Shown: one piece after another, positions 15,043-31,735 of the stretch
How positions within the stretch are numbered: position 1 is the stretch's first letter
Layout: the number at the start of each line of letters is the position of its first letter
NCBI RefSeq assembly: GCF_000379025.1
Contig: NZ_KB900620.1
Span: forward strand, 54,802 to 118,801
DNA from: Orenia marismortui DSM 5156
GTDB taxonomy: Bacteria; Bacillota; Halanaerobiia; Halobacteroidales; Halobacteroidaceae
Length of the DNA: 64,000 bases
Direction of reading: 5' to 3'
Notes under the pieces: generated by a model
Database searches by the model: none
What the model was told of the DNA's origin: nothing
Seen by the model: the letters and a program-made list of their open reading frames with translations, nothing else
Made by a program: the position numbers and the translations under genes

Positions 15043-16239
15043 ATGAAGAAAAGAATTATCACAAGTCTTTTAACTTTGACAATAATAATGTCTTTGGCTT
15101 TACCTGTTATGGCTTATAGACCAGAAGATATAGCTACAAACCATTGGGCTTTAGAATATATTAGCCCATTACTTGATGAGGGGATCATGTATGTCTACAA
15201 AGATGGAAAGTTTCATCCTAACCAGGCAACTACTAGAGGTGAATTTGCTTATTCTTTAGCTAAAGCAATGAATTTAGAAACTTCTACAAATTCAGAGCTT
15301 ACTGATATTAGCAATCACCCATCAAAAGGTTATATCTCTGCTCTAGTAAAAAGAGGGATCATTACTGGATATCCCGATAAAACCTTTAGACCAGAAAAGA
15401 AGATCACAAGAGCAGAAATTATTACAATGCTAGGACGTAGTTTAAGCTTAAATGATGAACAAAAAACAATCGAATTAGATGGTAACTTCTACTTTGATAT
15501 TAATGAAAATCATTGGGCAAATAACCTAATCTCTTTGGCTACTAGATTAAATATTATTAATGGATACCCTGATGGTAATTTCAAACCTAATAATTATGTA
15601 ACTAGAGCAGAGAGTGCCAAGTTATTAGCTAAGCTAAAAGGATTGAAAAAAGTAGAAGGACAAATCATTGAAACTTATCCTTTAGCTAGAAAGGTTAAAG
15701 TAAAAGTTGGAGATGAAATCAAAAACTTTAAGCTTTCTTCAAATACTTTAATCGGTCGAAATAACCGTCTAGTCAACCTAGATGAGATGCTTGTTTCTGA
15801 TGAAGCTTATCTATTATTAAATGAATCTAACAATGTAACTTACCTAAAAGCCTTTGGCTTAATTACTAAAGAAGATGTGGGTAACAAGGTGAGTGATCTA
15901 ACTAATAATATTCTAAGTGCAGAAGAATTGGTCTCAATTGCTGATGGTGATTGGGAAGCTGTTACTCCTCGTCTAAAGCAAGAGGTAACAATGACATTAT
16001 TAGAAGAAGGATTAACAATTAGTGAAGTTCAAGCTATGTTCAATCAGGACTGGAATCAATTAGAGCTTGCTGCTAAAGATAGATTGATTGAAGCAATCTC
16101 TATCAATACAAATCTTCCAGTAGAATTAATTGAAGCAGCATCTAATAAAGATTGGGAAACAGCTAAAGAGGTAGCTAAAAATACTGCTATCACAACTGCT
16201 CTAAAAGAGGTTATGAGTAGAAGTGATCTATTATCATAA
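15043..16239 (+). CDS. Secreted S-layer homology (SLH) domain protein
   Basis: A 398-residue exported protein. The signal peptide is MKKRIITSLLTLTIIMSLAL ending PVMA-Y (cleavage near 24/25). Three SLH repeats follow: YRPEDIATNHWALEYISPLL, ELTDISNHPSKGYISALVKR with GYPDKTFRPEKKITRAE, and FDINENHWANNLISLA with GYPDGNFKPNNYVTRAE. SLH domains bind wall polymers and anchor proteins at the envelope. The C-terminal half (about 210-398) is not a domain I recognise; it has a basic beta-like part and then helical repeats with IADGDWEAV and NKDWETAKE. GAAAGGGG precedes the ATG. It is monocistronic, ending at a palindromic terminator. Confidence 0.92.
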   Translation: MKKRIITSLLTLTIIMSLALPVMAYRPEDIATNHWALEYISPLLDEGIMYVYKDGKFHPNQATTRGEFAYSLAKAMNLETSTNSELTDISNHPSKGYISALVKRGIITGYPDKTFRPEKKITRAEIITMLGRSLSLNDEQKTIELDGNFYFDINENHWANNLISLATRLNIINGYPDGNFKPNNYVTRAESAKLLAKLKGLKKVEGQIIETYPLARKVKVKVGDEIKNFKLSSNTLIGRNNRLVNLDEMLVSDEAYLLLNESNNVTYLKAFGLITKEDVGNKVSDLTNNILSAEELVSIADGDWEAVTPRLKQEVTMTLLEEGLTISEVQAMFNQDWNQLELAAKDRLIEAISINTNLPVELIEAASNKDWETAKEVAKNTAITTALKEVMSRSDLLS

Positions 16240-16254
16240 TTCAATTTAAGAATT

Positions 16255-16286
16255 AAAATAGTCAGGATAATTATCCTGACTATTTT
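16255..16286. terminator. 32-bp palindromic terminator after the SLH gene
   Basis: Perfect arms 16255-16270 and 16271-16286 (AAAATAGTCAGGATAA and its complement) with no spacer, ending in a run of T residues on the plus strand 15 bases after the SLH stop. Confidence 0.85.
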
Positions 16287-16295
16287 TCATTTATC

Positions 16296-16583
16296 ATTAC
16301 TATATAAGTTGAACTAATAATTTAAATTTACTTAGAAACAAATTGAAAGCTAAATCTTTTTTTGACGCTGATTAAAATCTAATTAAGTTCTGACCTTATT
16401 TATTAGCTAGTAGCCATTAACTGTTAGCCAATAGCTACAATACCTGAGTAAGTCAACCAAGAGTGCTTCCTCAGTCATTGCCCTCTGAGTTTGGAAATAT
16501 AACCCTTCGTGAAATTTTAATTTTTAAGGTTCTTTTATTCATGTTAATTCATGGCTAAAAATTATTTTAGTAAGTACTTATAT
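16296..16583. repeat. Dispersed 'CACGAATTA' repeat, divergent copy
   Basis: The segment starts with ATTACTATATAAGTTGAACT and continues through AAATCTTTTTTT to TTCTTTTATTCATGTTAATT and CATGGCTAAAAATT. It aligns in order with the inverse of 31976-32147, which has the better-preserved words (ACTATATAAGTTGAACTAAT, AAATCTTTTTTT, CTTTATTCGTGTT, GTGTTAATTCGTGGTTAACC). A TAGCTAGTAGCC/AGCCAATAGCTA word repeat near 16397-16440 is nested within it. No gene is visible in this gap between the SLH terminator and the ATPase stop. Confidence 0.55.
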
Positions 16584-16643
16584 TTTAATGAGATTCTTTA
16601 ATTCAATCTATATAACAATTATAATTCTTCCTTAGTTTATAAT

Positions 16644-19600
16644 CTAATTCGCCTTCTGATTATCAAAATTAATATTACTATCTAATAGCACCATATCTTT
16701 ATTGATAATAATTTTCTCTTCATAATATACTTTAGAATTTTTATCTTTAAGAGTAATTTTACTACTATCGTATAATTGCTCAATGACCTGATAAAAAATA
16801 ATATCATCAGAAATAAATGGATTGTGCCTATAACTTTTACAACAGGATAATAGTTTTTCTATTAAAACTCCTGCTGTCTTACCCTTAATCTCTCTTAGAA
16901 TAAACTCCTTTAATAATAATCTATCACTCTTAATCATTTGAGACAAATTAAAGCTTTCATATTCTAAATCTTCCTTAGACAATTTTACTTCTCCATCTTT
17001 AGCAAACCATCTTAAATAAACACCAAAAGAACTTCTAAGATTATGTAATAATTGCTTCTTCTTTTCTTTCAACTTAGTTCTAATCCCTATATTCGCTTTT
17101 AACTCTTCCAGTAGTAAAATTTTTTTCATTAAAATAATATTTTCTTCTACTAAAATATTTTCATTTGCTTTAATAATTACTAATGTATTTTGAAATTTGC
17201 GACCATGATAAATATTATCTTCAAGAAATTCTTTTAATCTATCATCACTATATAAATCATTTAATAAAATCACATATTCTAAATCATTTTTATCTTCTAA
17301 TTGATGATAACTATAAACTTTGAATTCTTGTCCAAATAGATCTTTTGAAATTAGGGCTATTAGTCTCTCTTTAGCAATATTATCATCGACTTCTCTTAAT
17401 TGATCTTTAATTAAAGTCCTTATATCTTTATATATTAATTTATTATTGCTAGCTGTAAAGAGATAGTTCTCAACTCTTAATTCATCAATTAAAGCATCAA
17501 AAAACTCATCTTCAATAAGAAAAATTTTGCTTCTATCTTGTTTAAACCCCTCTAATAATTCTTCTGTATAAATTTTATCACCTCTATTATCAATCTCTGC
17601 TTTAACTAAGCCTTTAGCCAAATTGAAATCAGGCTTTATCTCTTCTAATATATTATCAATACTAATCTTCTCTTGCTTAAGCTTTATCCCCTTAGTATCT
17701 TGCTCCCATTTGAGATATAACCAATTAATATTCTGTAATAAATTATTTAATATTCTTTTCTTTTCATTTAATACTCCTGATTCTTTTCTTATACTATCTG
17801 AATTTCGGATAGCAATTATTTCTTTGATCAAATTAATAATTTCTACAGAAAATAAATCTTCTTTAGGCTTAATTATAGCTAGAGTATTCTTATATTTTAA
17901 TTTTTTATAGATCTTATCATTTAGAAAGAATTCTAATTCTCTTCTGTACAGCAATGAATTATTTGCATATTTCTCCAAATTGCTTGCTACTAGCTTATGA
18001 CTGATATCTAATAGTAATACTTTTACTTTTTTATTATCTTTTATTTGATCATGACCATATATCTGTATTTCTATATCAAATAACTCTTCTTTTATATAAT
18101 CAAACAACTCTTTTCTTGCCTCTTTGTTATTTATCTCTGCTACCTTTTCTTGAATCAGTACAGAATTGTCTTTATAAATACAATTATTATTCTTATCAAA
18201 AAATATCTTTTGACCCTTATGTAAAGCTATCAATAAATCATATAGCTCCTGCTGATCTACTTTAAAATTTAGTTCTATATTCTCTTCTATCCTATAAATC
18301 AAATCTTGAATAGCTAAAGAACACTTCTGTTCTAATATACTTAAAATATATTTCAATAATAGTTCTTTACTCTTATTATAAACTTCATTGTTCTTTGAAA
18401 TATAGATTTCATCTTTAATACTTAACTTTTTAATTACATTATAAAAAGTTTGATCTTGAATTATTATTGGATTAAATATATTCTTTTTTGTCTCAAGTAA
18501 TAATTCTTCAACTGTAATTTTCTTTCTTTCATTTAATTTTCTTTTAATATATTTTTCTATTGTAGTAAAGTCAGCTTCTATTTCTTCTTTTAGATTTATA
18601 TTTAAGCTTTCAATCTTCTTTTCTACTAAATCTATCTTTCCTTGAACTTGAGTCCAAATTAAATAGCTATATTTTAAGTTTTCTAAACTTTTCCTTAATT
18701 GATCTTCTAGCAAGTCTCTGAACAATTCAACTTCACTATTAAAGAAATTGTTTTCTCCTTCTTTTAATTGATCTAATAAATTTATCTTTTTAATTGTATT
18801 TATATTTTCTGGAGTACAAATACTTTTATCAGCTTTAATAATCAATAAATTATTTTTGAAGTTTCTATTATAAATTTTATTTTTAATTTCTTTTATTAAT
18901 TCTTTTTTAGATTCTGGTGGTGTAAGTAATAATACTACTTTAAAGTCTGAATCATCTTTAATTTGATCAAAATTATATATCTTGTAATCAAAGTCAACAA
19001 AGTTCTCTCTAAAAAAGGATAATAATTTATTTTGAGCTTTTCTTCGATCCATTTTGGGAAGTTTTTCATTAATTAAAGTAATAATATCTTTATCAACTTT
19101 AATTTTGTATTTCAAATTCTCTGTAATTAATTGGCTACTATGATTTATAACCCGTTTTAAATTTTCTTCTATTGCTTTTGCGTTATTCTTATCTGGCATA
19201 ACTAATCCTTGTAAAATCTCTTCCTGGCTTACAAATCTATCTTCACTAATCTGAACTAAAAAGATGATCTTTAGAATATCACTACAATATTCTCCTTTGT
19301 CTACACAATCAAGTAAATTCTCTTGAAAAGCTTCAGTAATACCTATATTAATTTTCTCAAATAGTTTAGTATTAAGATCAGATAGTAGAATTAATTCTTT
19401 GTCTTGATAATTTTCTTTGACTAATTTAGCTAATATTTTAATATGATTCATGGGTTTAGGTAGATAAGTGCAATATTTTTGATAAGACTTAATTATATAA
19501 TTAAGTAATTGAGGATGAAAGGGATAAGAGTTAATAAAGTTTTCTCTTACTTGCTCTATATTCTTAAAAGAAAATCCTATTCTCTGGTATTCTTCTAGAT

Positions 19601-20417
19601 ATTTATCTATTACTTCTTTTATTTCTTTTCGTTTAGTCTTCTTGTTTTTAAATAAACGATTGAAAATAATTTCTCTGCATTCATCTAAGTTATTCATATT
19701 CTTTACTCTAATTTCTAATTCATTATTAATGTCTGCTATTATTTGATTATCTTCTAAAGTTCCTAGACCAATAATTAACTTGTCATTTTCTTTTGCTTCT
19801 TTTAATAGAGTAGTCAAAAATATCTTGTTGGCTTCAAGCAAGTAGTCTTCTCTTTCATCATCAATGCTATCAAAGTATTCTTTTAAACCATCTATTAAAA
19901 TTAATGTATATTTATTATTAATTAATTCTCTAATTTCATCAACTTCTGGATAACCATAAATATTCTTAAGTATATCTTTCTTATCCAATTTATTAAAAAT
20001 TACTTCCCAAATTTTATCTGTTTTCTCTTTGCTAAGGTCTAAAATACAACTTTGACTATTATTCTTTATTTCTGTAATGGTAAATTTATTGAGCTTTATC
20101 TTATTCTCTTTAAGATAATCTTCTGCTACTTCAGGGGCTTGAAATAGATTATATAAAGCCAATAAAGCATGGGTTTTTCCTGTACCATGTTTAGCAGATA
20201 GAATAATGCTTCTGTTCATATTGATTCCTAATAAATTCTGATTAAGATTTATAAATAATTCTTTAAGAGTTGAAGTTATATATGTCAAGTCAAAAAATTG
20301 TTTTGGCGTAACTTCTATCTTTTCTTCCTGATATCTAATTTTAGATTCTTTTTTAGAAGGATCTAAACTAAAACAGTTACTTATAATATTCTCCTCTAAT
20401 TCTATTAACAAACTCAT
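16644..20417 (-). CDS. Large DUF499-like P-loop ATPase with triplicated C-terminal module
   Basis: A 1257-residue cytosolic protein. The N-terminus KQFFDLTYITSTLKELF, then Walker A SAKHGTGKTHALLALYNLF (P-loop at 75-82) matches the layout of DUF499 ATPases found in phage-defence loci, related in style to BrxC/PglY. The Walker B is LILIDGLKEYFDS: the usual Glu after Asp is Gly, so ATP hydrolysis may be impaired or use another residue. The C-terminal two thirds contain three related modules, anchored by IYNFDQIKDD near 480, IYGHDQIKDN near 785 and VYSYHQLEDK near 1036. Each is followed by an NTLxIIK-like strand, a YLxW helix and a FYxVIxxL winged-helix-like segment. It is transcribed alone, with AAGGGGAG before the ATG. 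The role is inferred as defence or DNA-associated regulation. Confidence 0.7.
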   Translation of the reverse strand: MSLLIELEENIISNCFSLDPSKKESKIRYQEEKIEVTPKQFFDLTYITSTLKELFINLNQNLLGINMNRSIILSAKHGTGKTHALLALYNLFQAPEVAEDYLKENKIKLNKFTITEIKNNSQSCILDLSKEKTDKIWEVIFNKLDKKDILKNIYGYPEVDEIRELINNKYTLILIDGLKEYFDSIDDEREDYLLEANKIFLTTLLKEAKENDKLIIGLGTLEDNQIIADINNELEIRVKNMNNLDECREIIFNRLFKNKKTKRKEIKEVIDKYLEEYQRIGFSFKNIEQVRENFINSYPFHPQLLNYIIKSYQKYCTYLPKPMNHIKILAKLVKENYQDKELILLSDLNTKLFEKINIGITEAFQENLLDCVDKGEYCSDILKIIFLVQISEDRFVSQEEILQGLVMPDKNNAKAIEENLKRVINHSSQLITENLKYKIKVDKDIITLINEKLPKMDRRKAQNKLLSFFRENFVDFDYKIYNFDQIKDDSDFKVVLLLTPPESKKELIKEIKNKIYNRNFKNNLLIIKADKSICTPENINTIKKINLLDQLKEGENNFFNSEVELFRDLLEDQLRKSLENLKYSYLIWTQVQGKIDLVEKKIESLNINLKEEIEADFTTIEKYIKRKLNERKKITVEELLLETKKNIFNPIIIQDQTFYNVIKKLSIKDEIYISKNNEVYNKSKELLLKYILSILEQKCSLAIQDLIYRIEENIELNFKVDQQELYDLLIALHKGQKIFFDKNNNCIYKDNSVLIQEKVAEINNKEARKELFDYIKEELFDIEIQIYGHDQIKDNKKVKVLLLDISHKLVASNLEKYANNSLLYRRELEFFLNDKIYKKLKYKNTLAIIKPKEDLFSVEIINLIKEIIAIRNSDSIRKESGVLNEKKRILNNLLQNINWLYLKWEQDTKGIKLKQEKISIDNILEEIKPDFNLAKGLVKAEIDNRGDKIYTEELLEGFKQDRSKIFLIEDEFFDALIDELRVENYLFTASNNKLIYKDIRTLIKDQLREVDDNIAKERLIALISKDLFGQEFKVYSYHQLEDKNDLEYVILLNDLYSDDRLKEFLEDNIYHGRKFQNTLVIIKANENILVEENIILMKKILLLEELKANIGIRTKLKEKKKQLLHNLRSSFGVYLRWFAKDGEVKLSKEDLEYESFNLSQMIKSDRLLLKEFILREIKGKTAGVLIEKLLSCCKSYRHNPFISDDIIFYQVIEQLYDSSKITLKDKNSKVYYEEKIIINKDMVLLDSNINFDNQKAN

Positions 20418-20680: not shown

Positions 20681-20768
20681 GCCGAAGTGGCGGAATTGGC
20701 AGACGCGTTGGATTCAAAATCCAATGGTCCTTGCGATCGTGTGGGTTCGAGTCCCACCTTCGGTACCA
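20681..20768 (+). tRNA. tRNA-Leu (anticodon CAA)
   Basis: A class II tRNA of 88 bases with encoded CCA. The acceptor arms GCCGAAG and CTTCGGT pair (first pair G-U), the anticodon arm TTGGATTCAAAATCCAA presents CAA, a long variable arm (TGGTCCTTGCGATCG) follows and the T arm GTGGGTTCGAGTCCCAC is canonical. It reads UUG leucine codons. It stands alone, with its own promoter and terminator, at the edge of the type III restriction-modification island, as integration-target tRNAs often do. Confidence 0.96.
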
Positions 20769-20815: not shown

Positions 20816-20886
20816 ATTTTTTGAGTAAATCCTGCCGAAATCCTGACATTTGATTTAAATAACTTAATATTTTACATAAGAATAAT

Positions 20887-20914
20887 AAAAGACCTGTCTT
20901 AAGACAGGTCTTTT
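20887..20914. terminator. 28-bp palindromic bidirectional terminator
   Basis: Perfect 14-base arms (AAAAGACCTGTCTT and its complement) with no spacer; T-runs on both strands. It lies between the convergent tRNA-Leu and the restriction subunit gene. Confidence 0.88.
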
Positions 20915-20917
20915 ATA

Positions 20918-23881
20918 TTAAAATATTTTATTCAAATCAAATTCCCAATATTTTTTATGATTTTCTTCAATTATAGAAGGTGGTAGGTCTTCATTGTAGT
21001 AATATAAATTCACTTCAATTTCTTTATCCTCATAAGATATAGCTTTATTCTTAAATGTTTCTTCAAATCCGTCAATTTTATTACCTGGATTTCGTACATG
21101 TTCTATGCCTTTAGGGTCTACAAACGTAATTATATATTTATTATCTTTTTTTAGCCAGAATATAAAATCAGGTTTAAAATCTCTATACTGTTGTGCTGAC
21201 TCATCATAATAAGGAATTGTAATATTATCTATTGTCTCATCTAATTTAGAAAAGAACCACCAATCATAGTTTTTTAAGTTATTATCAGATTTATTTGTAT
21301 AATTCTGCAAATCCTTAAGAAATTCTATTTCACTTTTAACATCAATAATATGTTTTATATCATTTGCTATAGATTGAGTTTCTTTATCCGACATTAAAAG
21401 AGGTTGGTAATAGTGATTCAATAATTTATTGTTTATTTCAATTGTTCCACCTTGTTTAGTAAAATCAGTTCCCTCATTAATTGCTCTATATTTTTCATCA
21501 AATTCTTCATCACTTATTTCACCATTTCTAAACTTATTACGTAAATCTTCTTTATTATAACCAGCTATATTTATTGCTTGCTGTATACTTTCTTCCAGAG
21601 AAGAAAGTTCATAATCATTAAAATCTCTAACTTTAATTTCTTTATAGTGGTTTACTTGATCAACCAATAGTTCATAGTGAGATAAAATTCTTGGAGGGTC
21701 TATAAAGTGTCTGTTTATTTTTAATAATAAGTCTTCTGAAGATAATTCATAATCCTTACCTGTTATTTCAAAATAATCTTTCCAGTTTTCAGTTTCATCT
21801 ATTAACTTTTTAAATATCTCTATAATAGAAATATTTAAATTATATTTCACTGCTAAAATTTTATCAAAAATATCTTTAAAATAATCTTTTAATGTATTAA
21901 TATTTCTTCTAGATATTCTAAAAGGTTTATTATTAAGTTTATCTTCTAGTTTTCGATATTTAGGTACTAATAAGATTTTAGATTCTGTATCTTTATTAGT
22001 TTCTAAATCTCTTACATCTTTCCATTCATCTGGTTTATTATCATCTTCTAATCTCTCAATAATATTGTTTACCGTTTCTTTGTCCGTAGCAAATATAAAT
22101 AAAGTTTCTAAAGAATCACTATAATCTTTAATACATTTAAATTCTTTTTGAGTAATATAATTAGTTATATTTTCTGTATTAGATATTTTAAGTAACCTTT
22201 TTCTTTTATTCTTAAAAGGTTCTATTCTTACTCCTCTTCCAATTGCTTGAAGAATAAACTTTTGAGAATCACTACTTAAACCAATATTAATAAAATTAAT
22301 AATATTAGGTCTATTGCTATCCCAACCTTCATAAAACTTTCTAGAACCCATTAACATATTTATATTACTCTTTTGTGTATCTATCTCATTAAAGAAACTA
22401 TTTGTAACAGGAGTATCATCAAAATTATAACCTTCTAACTCATCATTTTTCCAATTAGATATATTACCAATAATTATAGAAGCAAAATGTTGAGAAGAAG
22501 AACTTAATCTAAATGCTAATTCTTTATTATTATTAGGAATTCTAGTTACCTCAATACTACCTGGAGAATCAGCATTAAAGAAGTATCTAAGTATATCCTC
22601 TCTTTTAATATTTTCAATAGTATCAAGTAATTTCCTATTAATCTCATTTCCATAATTAAATTGATATTGTGGGTTATTACTCAAACTTTGTAATAATTCA
22701 TTTTTAGCACTTTGAATTTCATAATTCCCTTTTGCTATATTGGCTATCTGTCTGAAGAATAACTTCAATTCAGAATCTTTAGTATTAACCTTATGAGTTA
22801 AAGTTATCATTAATGGATCATGATACATATTAGCATTAATCTCAACAATACTTTCTTTATTCTTCTTTATTGCTGTGAAAAGAAGTAATGATTTTAATAT
22901 AATTCTTTGCTTTTCCTCATCTGTGAGTTTATCAGCTTGACTCTCCTTAAAACCTCTAAATTCTTCATCTACTATCTTTATATGTTTACCAAAACCTCTA
23001 GAAACAAAAGTAGATAAATTAAATTCAACTGCTGTAGTTACTAAATCAATATCATCTGTGAAAGTAGCTGAGAAATTAAATAAAAAACCATTTTGACTTA
23101 GAATATTATAGTACTGTTGTCTTCTACTATATTCACTATCTCCTTTATGAGCCTCATCTAGCAATATATACCAATTGCCATTATTATAAATAGATTCATA
23201 ATCTATTCTTTTTCCATCTGACTTTTGAGAAACATTTTCTTTATTAGATATATTAGTACTTTCATAATAGAATATAGTCAAAGATTGTTGAGAATAAAAA
23301 TCTAATTTCATATTATAAGAAGTCTCAAATTCTTTTAAGCTTTTTAAATTAATTTTAACATCACTAGTTTCATTAAATTCCATAATATGCTCTTTAATTT
23401 GAGACAATATATCATTATCAGGAGCTAATATCATAATCGGTTTATTTGGTATAAACCCTTTATTAGCCATCTTATATAATAATTCAATTAATTTAATCAT
23501 AACTAAAGTTTTTCCACTACCAGTTGCCATCCAAATTGAAGCTCTATTAATTAATTCTTTAAAATCTATATAAAAAGTTCCATCATTTTTTTTATTTATA
23601 GGATAATATTCTTTTAGAAAATCAAAATTATCATTATCTTGATAAATATTTAATTGTTTTAATAAACTAGTTGTATCATTATTTTGATATTTTTCAAATA
23701 GTTTTTCTTTTGAATCGTAATAATAATGAATTACTGTAAGAATATTTTTTAAAGCTTCTATTTGATAATCAAACAATTTCTTTTTAAGTCCAAATCTAGT
23801 TAAATTTAAATTATGATAATATTCTGGTAAATTTATATAATTATCATCTATTATATTTTTAAGAAGCCTTTTTTTACTCAT
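20918..23881 (-). CDS. res: Type III restriction enzyme, Res (helicase-nuclease) subunit
   Basis: The translocase/nuclease subunit of a type III restriction-modification system, cutting DNA away from unmodified sites in complex with Mod. SF2 helicase motifs are visible: Walker A ATGSGKT near 121, DEAH as LLDEAHKG near 244, SATFTDD after it, and QAIGRGVRIEP (motif VI). The C-terminal nuclease has PDFIFW near 900 and FVDPKG near 922, a PD-(D/E)xK site. I chose ATG 23881 (MSKKRLLK): its GGTGGGGG site is well spaced, while the ATG at 23887 is too close. It overlaps mod by 8 bases, so the two are co-translated. Length about 987 is normal and no frame damage is seen. Confidence 0.95.
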   Translation of the reverse strand: MSKKRLLKNIIDDNYINLPEYYHNLNLTRFGLKKKLFDYQIEALKNILTVIHYYYDSKEKLFEKYQNNDTTSLLKQLNIYQDNDNFDFLKEYYPINKKNDGTFYIDFKELINRASIWMATGSGKTLVMIKLIELLYKMANKGFIPNKPIMILAPDNDILSQIKEHIMEFNETSDVKINLKSLKEFETSYNMKLDFYSQQSLTIFYYESTNISNKENVSQKSDGKRIDYESIYNNGNWYILLDEAHKGDSEYSRRQQYYNILSQNGFLFNFSATFTDDIDLVTTAVEFNLSTFVSRGFGKHIKIVDEEFRGFKESQADKLTDEEKQRIILKSLLLFTAIKKNKESIVEINANMYHDPLMITLTHKVNTKDSELKLFFRQIANIAKGNYEIQSAKNELLQSLSNNPQYQFNYGNEINRKLLDTIENIKREDILRYFFNADSPGSIEVTRIPNNNKELAFRLSSSSQHFASIIIGNISNWKNDELEGYNFDDTPVTNSFFNEIDTQKSNINMLMGSRKFYEGWDSNRPNIINFINIGLSSDSQKFILQAIGRGVRIEPFKNKRKRLLKISNTENITNYITQKEFKCIKDYSDSLETLFIFATDKETVNNIIERLEDDNKPDEWKDVRDLETNKDTESKILLVPKYRKLEDKLNNKPFRISRRNINTLKDYFKDIFDKILAVKYNLNISIIEIFKKLIDETENWKDYFEITGKDYELSSEDLLLKINRHFIDPPRILSHYELLVDQVNHYKEIKVRDFNDYELSSLEESIQQAINIAGYNKEDLRNKFRNGEISDEEFDEKYRAINEGTDFTKQGGTIEINNKLLNHYYQPLLMSDKETQSIANDIKHIIDVKSEIEFLKDLQNYTNKSDNNLKNYDWWFFSKLDETIDNITIPYYDESAQQYRDFKPDFIFWLKKDNKYIITFVDPKGIEHVRNPGNKIDGFEETFKNKAISYEDKEIEVNLYYYNEDLPPSIIEENHKKYWEFDLNKIF

Positions 23882-26438
23882 TATCATTCCCCCACCATAT
23901 AAGTGGTTTTACGAAAGAATAGTCCTCATAAGTCATATCATCAAATACTATCTCAGTATCATCTTCAAAAATTACCCTTTCCCCATTAAGTTTTTTTATC
24001 TTTTTACCTAAAAGATTGGATAATGTTTCAGCAATATCTACATCAGGGTATAAATTTTGAAAATGGATTTTAATCTTTTCCTCATCATAGTCCATCTCTA
24101 GTGCATCTAACATTTTTTCATCGTTATTAAAGCTATATGAACTCAATTCTTTTTCTTGTAATTTATATTTACATTTATTTAATACTTCTTCATACTGTTC
24201 TAACTCATAATATTTAAAAAATCCTCCACCTTGCCAATCTACTTCATCTGAAATACCTGCTTGATCCCCTACGAGAACTTTTTTCATTCTTGGTAATATT
24301 TTAGTGTAAAAATGTTCTCCCATTTCTATCCCTATCCACTTATTCCCTTTCTTTTGAGCAGTTGAAATAGTAGATCCACTTCCACTAAAGAAATCCATTA
24401 CTATAGAATTCTTTTTAGTTGATAACTTCGTAATTTTATTTATTAAATATTCTGGCTTCTGGGTTTTAAATCCTATTCTCTCATTTGACATAGAATTTAA
24501 ATTCCTTAGAGAATTAGAAGAAATAAAAGACCATACATCATCTTCTGCTTGTCCTTCATCTGCATATACAATCTTTCCTGTATCTCCTCTAACCATATAC
24601 TTTCTTCCATCTTCATCAGTTTTATCATACCTATCTATATTTAATGCCTCTTTTCTAATCTCATTAAAAATAATATCTTCACCCTTTGAATATCTCAAGA
24701 TTACATTATGTTTTCTTTTTAAGTCAAATTTAGGAGCAGTACCAATATCAAAATGCCATATTATTTCATTTCTATATTTAAATTTATGATTTTGCATTAG
24801 TATTTTAGCATAATGATTAGCATTATAATCTATATGTAAATAAAAAGTTCCTCCTCTTGTTAAAATTTGTTTTGCAAGTCCTAACCTATCATTCATTAAA
24901 GTCAACCAAGTACTATCTTGAAACTTATCTTTATAATCAAAATCATCCCCTGTATTAAAAGGAGGATCAATATATATTAAATCAACTTGTTCTTTGTACT
25001 TTGGTAAAATTGTATTTAAAGCTTGAAAATTATCACTTTTTATTAAAATTCCATCTAAATATTTATTCAAATTATTAAAAGAATCTAGTATTTTCCCCTC
25101 AATTTCCTTAAAGTGTTTTGTATCTATGGGAAGATATCTATACTTTTCATTTAACCGCCCATCTGCTATTATACTTTCTTTATTAAAGTCATTTATAAAA
25201 TCAAATTCTTTCCATTGTTTTTTTATCTCTTCCCCTTCGTGATTTTCTTCGTTTTCATATAATCTTTGCCATTCTTTTATTTGATTATCAAAACCTTGAT
25301 GATTAATAATTTCTTCAACTAATTCAATATCATTCTCTAATTTATCCAAAGTTAAAACATAATTAGAATTTCTTACAAATTTAGGTTTTTCCCAAATAGC
25401 TTTTAACTCATCCTCAAAACGAGCTATATATTCAATTACTGAAAATGTAATTTCTCTAATTTTATTTAATAATGTAACCCTATTCTTTTTAAAATCTGTT
25501 TCACTGTTATAAATATAATTAAACATATAAATTTTAAATTGTTCTTTTAAAAAAGCCTCTGCATTTTTATGAATAAAATAATCTACTTCATTTTGTTTTC
25601 TATAAATGCTACATGCTTTTTTTAAGTTATTAAAGTTAATATTAGATTCTAACCTATTCAAGTATTCTTTTATATTTTCTACTCCTTTAACTCCAAATTC
25701 TACTTCTACAGTTCCAATCAAATCATCTTTCTCTGTTATTAAAACCATATTTCTCTGAATACCTTTAGTTAATCTATCATCATCTATTATAATATCATTA
25801 ATAATCATATTAATATTAGGATGGGATATATCTTCTCTATTTTCAATTAAATAGTCCTTTAAATCTCTATTCTTATTTATATTCAAATGTTCTTTTGCTT
25901 TAGTATAGCTATTAGTCTTATCTTTTTTTACTTTTAAAGTAATTTCATTATCTTCTAAAGAAGTTAAAACAAAAGTAATATTATATTTTTCATTACCTTT
26001 TTCATGTTCTAGCTCACTTGCATCAAATTTAAATTTAATTCCTTCTATTTCCGTATCTAAAGATATATAATTAGATTCTGATTTTACATAATAAAGTTTT
26101 TTAGTCTTCCAAAATAATGAAACATCTTCTTCATTACTATAAACCTTTTCATAAAGATTTTTATGTATAGGTGTATTATTAAAAAAAACACTGCCAGTTT
26201 CATTAAAATAACTTTCAAAAAAAGTAAATAATTTCTCAAAAAGCACCTCTTGTTCACCTGGATCTTGTATTAGATTATTTATTTTTTCTTCAATATAAGG
26301 TCTAACTTCTTTGAAATATTGATTTCTTAAATACATAAGATTAACATAACCAGAATTCCCTTCTATTCTTTCACCTACAAATAAGTCCTTTAGTGAACTA
26401 AAAAATCTTTGTTTATATCTAATGTTTTCTTCAACCAT
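23874..26438 (-). CDS. mod: Type III DNA methyltransferase, Mod subunit
   Basis: An N6-adenine methyltransferase and recognition subunit of the type III system, 854 residues. It is of beta type: catalytic motif IV LIYIDPPFNTGD near residue 488 precedes the SAM-binding motif I MDFFSGSGST near 684, with the recognition domain between them. The first 440 residues are a helical, charged extension that makes this Mod longer than the E. coli EcoP15I protein; its role is unclear. GGAGG lies about 12 bases before the ATG. It overlaps res and is the first gene of the pair. No repeat tract suggesting phase variation is seen. Confidence 0.94.
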   Translation of the reverse strand: MVEENIRYKQRFFSSLKDLFVGERIEGNSGYVNLMYLRNQYFKEVRPYIEEKINNLIQDPGEQEVLFEKLFTFFESYFNETGSVFFNNTPIHKNLYEKVYSNEEDVSLFWKTKKLYYVKSESNYISLDTEIEGIKFKFDASELEHEKGNEKYNITFVLTSLEDNEITLKVKKDKTNSYTKAKEHLNINKNRDLKDYLIENREDISHPNINMIINDIIIDDDRLTKGIQRNMVLITEKDDLIGTVEVEFGVKGVENIKEYLNRLESNINFNNLKKACSIYRKQNEVDYFIHKNAEAFLKEQFKIYMFNYIYNSETDFKKNRVTLLNKIREITFSVIEYIARFEDELKAIWEKPKFVRNSNYVLTLDKLENDIELVEEIINHQGFDNQIKEWQRLYENEENHEGEEIKKQWKEFDFINDFNKESIIADGRLNEKYRYLPIDTKHFKEIEGKILDSFNNLNKYLDGILIKSDNFQALNTILPKYKEQVDLIYIDPPFNTGDDFDYKDKFQDSTWLTLMNDRLGLAKQILTRGGTFYLHIDYNANHYAKILMQNHKFKYRNEIIWHFDIGTAPKFDLKRKHNVILRYSKGEDIIFNEIRKEALNIDRYDKTDEDGRKYMVRGDTGKIVYADEGQAEDDVWSFISSNSLRNLNSMSNERIGFKTQKPEYLINKITKLSTKKNSIVMDFFSGSGSTISTAQKKGNKWIGIEMGEHFYTKILPRMKKVLVGDQAGISDEVDWQGGGFFKYYELEQYEEVLNKCKYKLQEKELSSYSFNNDEKMLDALEMDYDEEKIKIHFQNLYPDVDIAETLSNLLGKKIKKLNGERVIFEDDTEIVFDDMTYEDYSFVKPLIWWGNDNE

Positions 26439-26909: not shown

Positions 26910-27434
26910 TTAAATCAATCTTCTTACTACATCTGAATCAAGAGTAACAAACTTAAATTTAATCTTTTTATCAGTTAATTGATACGTAGTCTTCTCTAAT
27001 AGTCTTAAAAATTTTGTTTCAATCCAATCTTGTGCAAATTCATTTTTAACACTAACTATTAATGTATCCTCAACAAAAGCAACTGGTTCAAGAGTTGAAA
27101 ACCAAGTCTCAAAACTTGAAGTAGACATTTCACTCTTAAACACTTCCATTAAGTCACCCCATAGTTCAGGTATTTTTTTATTGGGAATTACTGAATCTTT
27201 TGCTTTGTTCTCTAAAAAAGTTTTAAGTTTTTCTATCTCTCTTTCTTTTAATTCAGACTTTTCCTGTTGAAACTCTTTTCTAAACTCTTTTTTTATTTCT
27301 TCTAATTTTATTGAATTATCAGATTGACTAACTTCTTTTTCACCTTCCCCCCTCAATTCACCCTCTATACTATCAAGCCTTGATTCTATTTTTTCTATCT
27401 TCTCTAGTATTAAATTAATCTTATCTGATTTCAC
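26910..27434 (-). CDS. Coiled-coil protein with a DnaA N-terminal (domain I) fold
   Basis: A 174-residue protein. Residues 1-95 are charged heptad-like sequence (ILEKIEKIESRLDSIEGEL, then long Lys/Glu helices). Residues about 102-170 match DnaA domain I: LWGDLMEVFKSEMSTSSFET, W near 125, FVEDTLIVSVKNEFAQDWIE and KIKFKFV, the order seen at the start of the replication initiator DnaA. DnaA ATPase and DNA-binding domains are absent. In DnaA this domain binds DnaB helicase and other partners, so the protein may compete for or recruit replication factors; that is inference. The start is GTG after GGGGAG. It sits between a type III restriction-modification pair and a dead integrase. Confidence 0.8.
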   Translation of the reverse strand: MKSDKINLILEKIEKIESRLDSIEGELRGEGEKEVSQSDNSIKLEEIKKEFRKEFQQEKSELKEREIEKLKTFLENKAKDSVIPNKKIPELWGDLMEVFKSEMSTSSFETWFSTLEPVAFVEDTLIVSVKNEFAQDWIETKFLRLLEKTTYQLTDKKIKFKFVTLDSDVVRRLI

Positions 27435-30490: not shown

Positions 30491-31735
30491 TGCAATATAA
30501 AATGCACGTTTTTTTGTGAAACACTTATACCCCATATAATATAAACTTTTAAGCTACTTTTAATTTATTTTCAAAAACTTCATTCGAAGTTTTAAAATCA
30601 AACATCTTTCTTGGGTAGTTATTCATCCATTGTTGAATATTTTTAACCTCACTCGTACTAATATCTTTGAAACTGCTTCCTTTTGGCAAAAACCTTCTAA
30701 TCATCTTATTTAAATTTTCATTACTACCTCTTTGCCAAGAACAATAGGCATCAGCATAGTAATGATTAGTTCTTGGTATATTACTTCCTGTAAATGAAGT
30801 CTCTATTCCTTCATAATCATAAAATTCCCGCCCGTTGTCTGTTGTTATCGTCTTAAATAACTCTCTAAACCTTCTTACCACCTATTCTTCTTTCAATTCG
30901 ATCTAATCCATTTATAATCTGCTTCTTGAGTCTTATTACGATATTTTTTCTATTATCTCTTTTCGACTATATCTTTCTGTTAAAACTAGTAAGAATGGCT
31001 CTCCTTTTCCTTTTTTACCTTCTACTAAGTCCATTTCCCAATGACCTAACTCTGTTCTTTTATTAGCTTCCTCAGGTCTATCTGATATCCTTCTGCCATC
31101 TTTTCTCCTCTTAGTTGATTCCTTTTCTTGTCTTTTAGTACCTTTAGATTTTTTATAATTACCATAGACTAACTCATCTCTATTTACCATCAAGATACCT
31201 TTGTCTATATAATTGTATATTGTTTTCCAATGTAGCTTAATTTCAAATCTTTCATCTTCCTGTATTTGATTAGCAATTACTTCTGGAGACCATTTATCTT
31301 GTTTTATTTTTCTTTCTATAAATCTTGCTAACTCATGTTCCTTAGCTATTTTTATCTTAGTTCCTTTAGCTGTAGCATTTTTATCATAGACTTTTTGCGC
31401 TATTTCAGCATCATATTCTATTCTTGTCGTATAATCAGAATTTAATAATTTTAATTCACCTTTCTTAAGCTCTCTACTTATTGTTGTTCTATGTTTTCCT
31501 AACTCTTTTGCGATCTCCTTATCTTTCTTACCTTGAATATTATATAAATGCTCTATTATTTTCCTATCTTCCAAAGTTAGGTGTTTTCCTTTTTTACTTT
31601 TTCTGTTATAATTATTTTGACACATATTTTAATACCTCACTTTATGTTATTTGTGGTTATTTAACATTATATATGAGGTATTTCTATGTGTCACTTTTTA
31701 TTTTTTGATCTACCTGTGCATTTAATTATACAATG
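30491..31735. mobile_element. IS30-family insertion sequence, decayed
   Basis: About 1.2 kb. The left end TGCAATATAAAATGCAC and the right end read inward CATTGTATAATTAAATGCAC share AAATGCAC as imperfect terminal repeats. Between them is a broken IS30-type transposase. Exact ends and target duplication are uncertain. The element lies between ahpC and a gene-free region. Confidence 0.75.
30549..31625 (-). pseudogene. IS30-family transposase, frameshifted
   Basis: The N-terminal part (30936-31625) has the IS30 helix-turn-helix HLTLEDRKIIEHLYNI, then KEIAKELGKHRTTISRELKK, and the first catalytic Asp in ELGHWEMDLVEG. The C-terminal part (30549-30881) has TITTDNGREF with the second Asp and RGSNENLNKMIRRFLPKG with the catalytic Glu. 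Between about 30880 and 30960 the frame is interrupted by several small indels and stops, so a full DDE transposase cannot be made. A single programmed frameshift would not repair it. Confidence 0.88.

What the first reader, a model, noticed from the sequence alone, without database searches (positions are those of the whole stretch)
16644..20417. Solitary DUF499-like ATPase with a triplicated C-terminal module and a Gly in place of the Walker B Glu
The N-terminus has the DUF499 layout (FFDLTYIT ... AKHGTGKTH), but the Walker B reads LILIDGL. Three related modules (anchors near residues 480, 785 and 1036: YxFDQIKD, then NTLxIIK, then YLxW, then FYxVIxxL) make up the rest. DUF499 proteins normally sit with methyltransferase and nuclease partners. 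This one is alone but directly beside tRNA-Leu and a type III system, so it could be a stand-alone or split defence system.
Basis: partly seen in the sequence, partly recalled or inferred. Interest (0 to 1): 0.7.

Follow-up and report, generated by a model that had tools for sequence, protein, structure and literature searches.

The report
Orphan BREX-like ATPase with repeated DNA-binding arms
A salt-loving bacterium carries, on its own, a relative of the ATPase that organises BREX-type phage-defence complexes; it has lost the residue normally needed to burn ATP and carries three copies of the part that binds DNA in its relatives (related genes have one, four or nine), so it may be a stand-alone protein that clamps DNA, though no function has been tested.

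Summary
The 1257-codon ORF (16644-20417, minus) is intact and single-copy. It is a divergent DUF499 ATPase of the BrxC/ORC-Cdc6 type. A ~233-residue unit (alpha+beta domain plus winged helix) occurs three times (448-680, 754-996, 1002-1231), with an extra winged helix at 682-748. Sequence (27-31% identity, E 1e-15 to 1e-26) and predicted secondary structure (87-91% agreement against at most 51% when shifted) both show it. Canonical relatives carry this unit once. Walker B reads LIDG; 24 of 26 compared ATPases have DE.

Closest kin: two orphan genes in Halanaerobacter jeridensis (4 and 9 units, each interrupted once) and single-unit genes in Fuchsiella and haloarchaeal plasmids, which sit in a conserved ATPase-PglZ-methyltransferase-small protein cassette. 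The orphans form one supported clade without cassette partners or the cassette protein's C-terminal domain. The gene is an accessory insertion between an SLH gene and tRNA-Leu, apparently transcribed separately from the neighbouring type III system.

Best reading, by analogy with published BrxC work (its Walker-B mutant still binds ATP and DNA; DNA binding maps to this unit): an ATP-loaded, hydrolysis-impaired DNA-binding scaffold with multiplied arms. A defence role is plausible but untested.

The parts
16644..20417 (-). Orphan DUF499/BrxC-like ATPase gene, 1257 aa
   Evidence: intact, one copy
19383..20417 (-). N-terminal ORC/Cdc6-type AAA+ ATPase (residues 1-345); Walker A at about residues 75-83
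   Evidence: NF042962 E 7e-17; Foldseek best hits ORC and Cdc6/Orc1, E 3e-6, on a low-confidence model; alignment
19887..19892 (-). Walker B D176-G177 (GAT GGT) where 24 of 26 compared ATPases have D-E
19077..19382 (-). Helical bundle and first winged helix (residues 346-447), boundaries inferred
   Evidence: by alignment to the architecture in PMC12839542; low model confidence
18378..19076 (-). Module 1 (residues 448-680): alpha+beta domain plus winged helix
18174..18374 (-). Extra winged helix (residues 682-748)
   Evidence: module profile positions 167-233, E 2e-13; predicted H-H-H-E-E
17430..18158 (-). Module 2 (residues 754-996), with an insertion of about 15 residues near residue 810
16725..17414 (-). 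Module 3 (residues 1002-1231), the copy closest to the single Fuchsiella module (37% identity)
16255..16286 (.). Perfect 16-bp palindrome between the convergent DUF499 and SLH genes; terminator-like
20681..20768 (+). tRNA-Leu(CAA), syntenic anchor of the insertion site
20885..20916 (-). Terminator-like hairpin at the end of the type III res gene; separates that operon from the DUF499 gene
20918..26438 (-). Neighbouring type III restriction-modification genes (res 20918-23887, mod 23874-26438); judged not part of the system
15043..16239 (+). SLH-domain protein, the other anchor of the site

Best explanation
The gene encodes a stand-alone descendant of the DUF499 ATPase of a BREX-related cassette (ATPase, PglZ, DUF1156 methyltransferase, small protein). 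Its lineage lost the cassette partners and the C-terminal domain, and multiplied the alpha+beta/winged-helix unit that carries DNA binding in BrxC. Mechanism proposed: the AAA+ domain binds ATP and self-associates. Lacking the catalytic Walker-B glutamate it hydrolyses ATP slowly or not at all, so it stays in the ATP-bound, DNA-competent state. The repeated units give each subunit several contacts along the duplex, so it sits on or bridges DNA as a scaffold or roadblock, most likely against incoming DNA. Shown here: family, repeat architecture, Walker-B change, orphan status, accessory location. Inferred: direction of evolution, ATP binding, DNA binding, oligomerisation and any defence role.
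For: DUF499 kinship and ORC/Cdc6-like fold. The unit aligns to the single alpha+beta/winged-helix region of ordinary DUF499 proteins (hhalign E 4e-7 and 9e-7). Triplication and conserved secondary structure. The orphan proteins of this genome and Halanaerobacter form one clade (99/99), Fuchsiella next (80/96); they carry 3, 4 and 9 units against 1 in Fuchsiella and haloarchaeal plasmids. Halanaerobacter has neither PglZ nor DUF1156, the window genome no DUF1156. The cassette protein's C-terminal domain is absent from all orphans. Published BrxC: E269Q in Walker B keeps ATP-dependent DNA binding, lowers hydrolysis and strengthens the ATP-dependent dimer; DNA binding involves the alpha+beta domain and wHTH domains (PMC13326643). 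Repeats of Halanaerobacter copy 2 show dN/dS of roughly 0.25-0.36.
Against: No biochemistry on this protein. Module net charge is near zero (+4, -2, +1), no sign of a strongly basic DNA-binding surface. One Halanaerobacter copy keeps the Walker-B Glu, so loss of hydrolysis does not define the lineage. Both Halanaerobacter copies carry one interruption, which fits decay, and both sister genomes of the genus lack the gene. The Acinetobacter BrxC mutant loses restriction and methylation. Structure models are of moderate (69) and low (54) mean pLDDT.
Confidence: 0.45

Rival explanations
1. A remnant: a DUF499 ATPase stranded after its cassette was lost, drifting towards decay without function.
For: Walker-B Glu lost; partners absent; both Halanaerobacter copies interrupted once, by an in-frame TAA and by a frameshift; absent from both sister genomes of the genus.
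Against: 1257 codons intact; Walker A kept; G177 is GGT, two steps from any Glu codon, so not a fresh single mutation; repeats evolved under purifying selection in Halanaerobacter; the module number is 3, 4 and 9 in the orphan clade, which passive decay does not explain.
Confidence: 0.25
2. An ATPase that still hydrolyses ATP with a shifted acidic residue (IDGLKEYF, compare the D-[GAS]-h-x-E Walker B of NACHT/STAND NTPases), working as a nucleotide-switch sensor.
For: E180 sits four residues after D176; Halanaerobacter copy 2 has IDDSDEFF with an acidic residue at the same place. The NACHT pattern is from general knowledge and was not tested here.
Against: In Fuchsiella and Halanaerobacter copy 1 the +4 position is not acidic (R, A), so it is not a conserved feature of the family; no STAND-type family hit for this protein.
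Confidence: 0.12
3. Functional partner of another defence system in the cell: the adjacent type III system, or the type 1 BREX locus on contig C3.
For: Same strand as the type III genes, 500 bp away; the genome encodes BrxA, BrxB, BrxC, PglX and PglZ on C3.
Against: Terminator-like hairpin and tRNA between it and the type III genes; the two sides of the tRNA vary independently in relatives; Halanaerobacter has the protein without any PglZ, hence without BREX.
Confidence: 0.1
4. A replication or segregation factor: an ORC/Cdc6-like DNA loader adapted for plasmid or chromosome maintenance.
For: ORC/Cdc6 are the best structural matches; one Halanaerobacter copy lies beside a gene that looks ParM-like by eye.
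Against: No conserved neighbour of that kind at the other loci; accessory distribution; family-level kinship is with defence ATPases.
Confidence: 0.08

Closest known systems
DUF499 ATPase of BREX-related (BR/Hma) systems (PMC12839542)
   Same: ORC/Cdc6-type AAA+, first winged helix, alpha+beta domain, second winged helix
   Different: Three alpha+beta/winged-helix units instead of one, no C-terminal RRM-like domain found, Walker-B Glu lost, no DUF1156 methyltransferase, Swi2/Snf2 helicase or PglZ alongside
BrxC/PglY of BREX (PMC13326643)
   Same: Same overall layout; the natural Walker-B change resembles the laboratory E269Q mutant
   Different: No detectable module similarity to the genome's own BrxC; BrxC has a C-terminal coiled coil and acts with BrxB, PglZ and PglX
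DUF499-PglZ-DUF1156 methyltransferase cassette of Fuchsiella and haloarchaeal plasmids
   Same: Closest sequence relatives outside the orphan clade; same subfamily of ATPase and module
   Different: One module, canonical DE Walker B, four-gene cassette, C-terminal domain present
Orphan genes of Halanaerobacter jeridensis (two loci; L017, L018)
   Same: Same clade, no cassette partners, repeated modules, no C-terminal cassette domain
   Different: 4 and 9 modules, each reading frame interrupted once; tails are a zinc-ribbon-like motif in one and an acidic stretch in the other

Membership tests
DUF499 ATPase family | N-terminal AAA+ domain with DUF499 profile similarity | tested here: met
   NF042962 E 7e-17 over residues 37-305, HmaC 8e-11; below the curated full-length cut-off and no direct Pfam hit
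DUF499 ATPase family | winged helix, alpha+beta, winged helix triad after the ATPase | tested here: met
   module profile aligns to residues 454-683 of a canonical DUF499 (E 4e-7); secondary structure; the first winged helix rests on alignment only
DUF499 ATPase family | C-terminal RRM-like domain | tested here: not met
   profile of the Fuchsiella/haloarchaeal C-terminal domain finds nothing in the window protein, which ends 26 residues after module 3
DUF499 ATPase family | Walker-B acidic pair DE | tested here: not met
   DG in the window, 24 of 26 DE
BREX-related (BR types 1-3) defence system | DUF1156 N6-methyltransferase in the locus | tested here: not met
   no DUF1156 in the whole genome
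BREX-related (BR types 1-3) defence system | Swi2/Snf2 helicase, or PglZ in type 3, in the locus | tested here: not met
   neighbours are a type III res/mod pair across tRNA-Leu and an SLH gene; the genome's only PglZ lies in the BREX locus on C3
BREX BrxC (DUF6079) | similarity to BrxC models beyond the ATPase | tested here: not met
   no BrxC model hit; hhalign of the modules to own BrxC 0.1% probability, with a single-sequence target
Type III restriction-modification system | part of the mod-res operon | tested here: not met
   terminator-like hairpin 20885-20916 and opposite-strand tRNA between them; transcripts not measured
Any anti-phage defence system | protection against phage or foreign DNA | not testable with these tools
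   needs a challenge experiment

The most novel reading that the evidence does not exclude
A single-protein system, free of methyltransferase and nuclease, in which a naturally hydrolysis-dead BrxC-like ATPase with a variable number (3 to 9) of DNA-binding arms blocks foreign DNA by itself, the arm number changing by duplication of units as a way to tune recognition.
Probability: 0.2. Interest if true: 0.75.

Novelty: new variant of a known kind. Interest (0 to 1): 0.52.

Why it matters
BREX ATPases are the hub of a widespread defence family whose mechanism is still debated. A natural version that dropped every partner and the catalytic glutamate, but kept and multiplied the DNA-binding part, would separate ATP-dependent DNA binding from methylation and restriction. 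It makes testable whether the ATPase has an activity of its own.

Tried and rejected
Pfam and PDB sequence searches with the protein gave nothing useful. Scanning genome contigs with the single sequence found no relative; the alignment found Fuchsiella, Halanaerobacter and one Anaerolineales fragment. Phage and viral collections: none. A three-module alignment with overlapping repeats was misaligned by MAFFT and discarded (A3). The module tree is mostly unresolved, so whether modules were gained once or repeatedly cannot be said, except for the later two-module duplications in Halanaerobacter copy 2 (47-56% identity). The structure search of the modules gave only winged-helix matches (cullin WHB, TM 0.7-0.76 of the target, probability 0.96-1.0 but E about 0.3). 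Considered and rejected: type III partnership; chance repetition.

Full report
The observation. The ORF at 16644-20417 (minus strand) is real, intact and single-copy, 1257 aa, with a good ribosome-binding site. It matches the NCBIfam model for anti-phage DUF499 proteins over residues 37-305 (E 7e-17) and PADLOC HmaC (8e-11), without reaching the full-length cut-off and without any Pfam hit. Walker A is AKHGTGKTH. Walker B is LILIDGL: D176 is GAT and G177 is GGT. Of 26 aligned ATPases, including ordinary DUF499 proteins and the genome's own BrxC, 24 have DE; the exceptions are this protein (DG) and Halanaerobacter copy 2 (DD). GGT is two steps from any Glu codon and one from the GAT seen in Halanaerobacter copy 2, so the change is probably not a fresh lesion; a path through Asp is an inference.

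The repeats. Starting from the one module of the Fuchsiella protein, a single-sequence search finds three copies in the window protein with E 1e-25, 4e-24 and 1e-48, and nothing in 200 shuffles. An iterated profile places them at 448-680, 754-996 and 1002-1231 and adds a lone winged helix at 682-748. Copies are 27-31% identical to each other. In the AlphaFold2 model of residues 440-1257 (mean pLDDT 69, pTM 0.44) each copy has the same element order: helix-helix-strand-strand-helix-strand-helix-helix-hairpin, then the helices of a winged helix. Position-wise agreement is 87-91% against at most 51% when shifted. The repeats themselves guided the alignment used for the model and for this comparison, so the agreement is not fully independent of the sequence evidence. 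Profile-profile comparison shows that the unit is the alpha+beta plus second winged-helix region that ordinary DUF499 proteins carry once (E 4e-7 and 9e-7). The published survey of the family describes this triad, with occasional duplication of the winged helix alone; I found no mention there of duplication of the whole unit.

Relatives. Of 13 genomes of the order, two others match: G004 (Fuchsiella alkaliacetigena) with a single module, and G006 (Halanaerobacter jeridensis) with two loci of 4 and 9 modules. No other of 59 class genomes matches. Of 399 phylum genomes sampled, only the window genome and Fuchsiella carry this type of module, while 21 others have ordinary DUF499 matches at E 1e-5 or better. 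The Halanaerobacter copies are each interrupted once, by an in-frame TAA (C1) and by a frameshift (C2); decay and assembly error cannot be told apart here. Within C2, modules 3/5/7 (47-50% identical) and 6/8 (56%) show later two-module duplications, with dN/dS roughly 0.25-0.36; dS is near saturation, so this is rough.

The cassette. The single-module ATPase occurs in Fuchsiella and on five haloarchaeal plasmids. In Fuchsiella and the three of those plasmids that I looked at, the gene order is ATPase, PglZ-like protein, DUF1156-type methyltransferase, small protein. Fuchsiella and Haloplanus share 35% (PglZ), 48% (methyltransferase) and 31% (small protein) identity. The cassette ATPase has a C-terminal domain that is missing from the window protein and both Halanaerobacter proteins. 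Halanaerobacter has no PglZ and no DUF1156 anywhere; the window genome has no DUF1156, and its only PglZ belongs to a type 1 BREX locus on contig C3. The ATPase tree unites the three orphans (99/99), with Fuchsiella as sister (80/96), long branches being a caution.

The site. Relatives keep polA, the SLH gene and tRNA-Leu in the same order. In G012 and G008 the SLH gene and the tRNA are about 130-200 bp apart; in G011 a spore-germination operon and a chemoreceptor gene fill the interval. So the gene is an accessory insertion. Its GC is 24%, against 30% for the window and 33% for polA. The type III pair lies on the other side of the tRNA and ends in its own terminator-like hairpin.

Mechanism. 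Work on BrxC (PMC13326643) shows that DNA binding is ATP-dependent but does not need hydrolysis, that a Walker-B E-to-Q mutant keeps ATP-dependent DNA binding and stabilises the ATP-dependent dimer, and that binding involves the alpha+beta and winged-helix domains. The window protein combines a comparable Walker-B loss with three copies of that region. Hence my reading: an ATP-loaded scaffold that holds DNA through several arms. Every functional step is inference by homology; E-to-G need not act as E-to-Q does, and module net charge is near neutral. Decay, a shifted catalytic residue, partnership with resident defence systems and a replication role remain as rivals.

Verdict. A new variant of a known kind: an orphan, repeat-expanded, Walker-B-altered branch of the DUF499/BrxC ATPases. 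Interesting and testable; function unproven.

Noticed in passing
L016 1350-7871 (Fuchsiella); L044 7926-14423, L045, L047 (haloarchaeal plasmids): Conserved four-gene cassette DUF499 - PglZ-like - DUF1156-type methyltransferase - 132/142-aa protein, shared between a bacterium and haloarchaeal plasmids; no Swi2/Snf2 helicase annotated beside it, so it differs from published type 3 BR systems. Haloarchaeal copies also have a DNA adenine methylase next.
   Followed up: partly
L017 ~13977 and L018 ~12758 (Halanaerobacter jeridensis): Both repeat-expanded orphan genes carry exactly one interruption, an in-frame TAA in module 4 and a frameshift in module 4.
   Followed up: partly
L018 8925-16936: Nine tandem modules with later two-module duplications, about 2,650 residues in two reading frames.
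   Followed up: partly
L052 and L053 (own genome, contig C3): Type 1 BREX locus (BrxA, BrxB, BrxC, PglX, PglZ) with a 1163-aa UvrD-like and a 978-aa unassigned protein after PglZ; BrxL not looked for.
   Followed up: partly
window 26910-27434: 174-aa protein with a DnaA N-terminal domain but no AAA+ domain, beside the type III genes.
   Followed up: no
window 16281-16618: Intergenic stretch downstream of the DUF499 gene with many 70-90% matches in sister genomes, a dispersed repeat of unknown kind.
   Followed up: no
window 20681-20768 and flanks; L048, L049, L050: tRNA-Leu locus is a variable site in relatives: integrase, phage-like genes and a type I R gene in G011, antiporter genes in G012, a transposase in G008.
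   Followed up: partly
window 30549-31625: IS30-like transposase in two reading frames (judged by eye).
   Followed up: no
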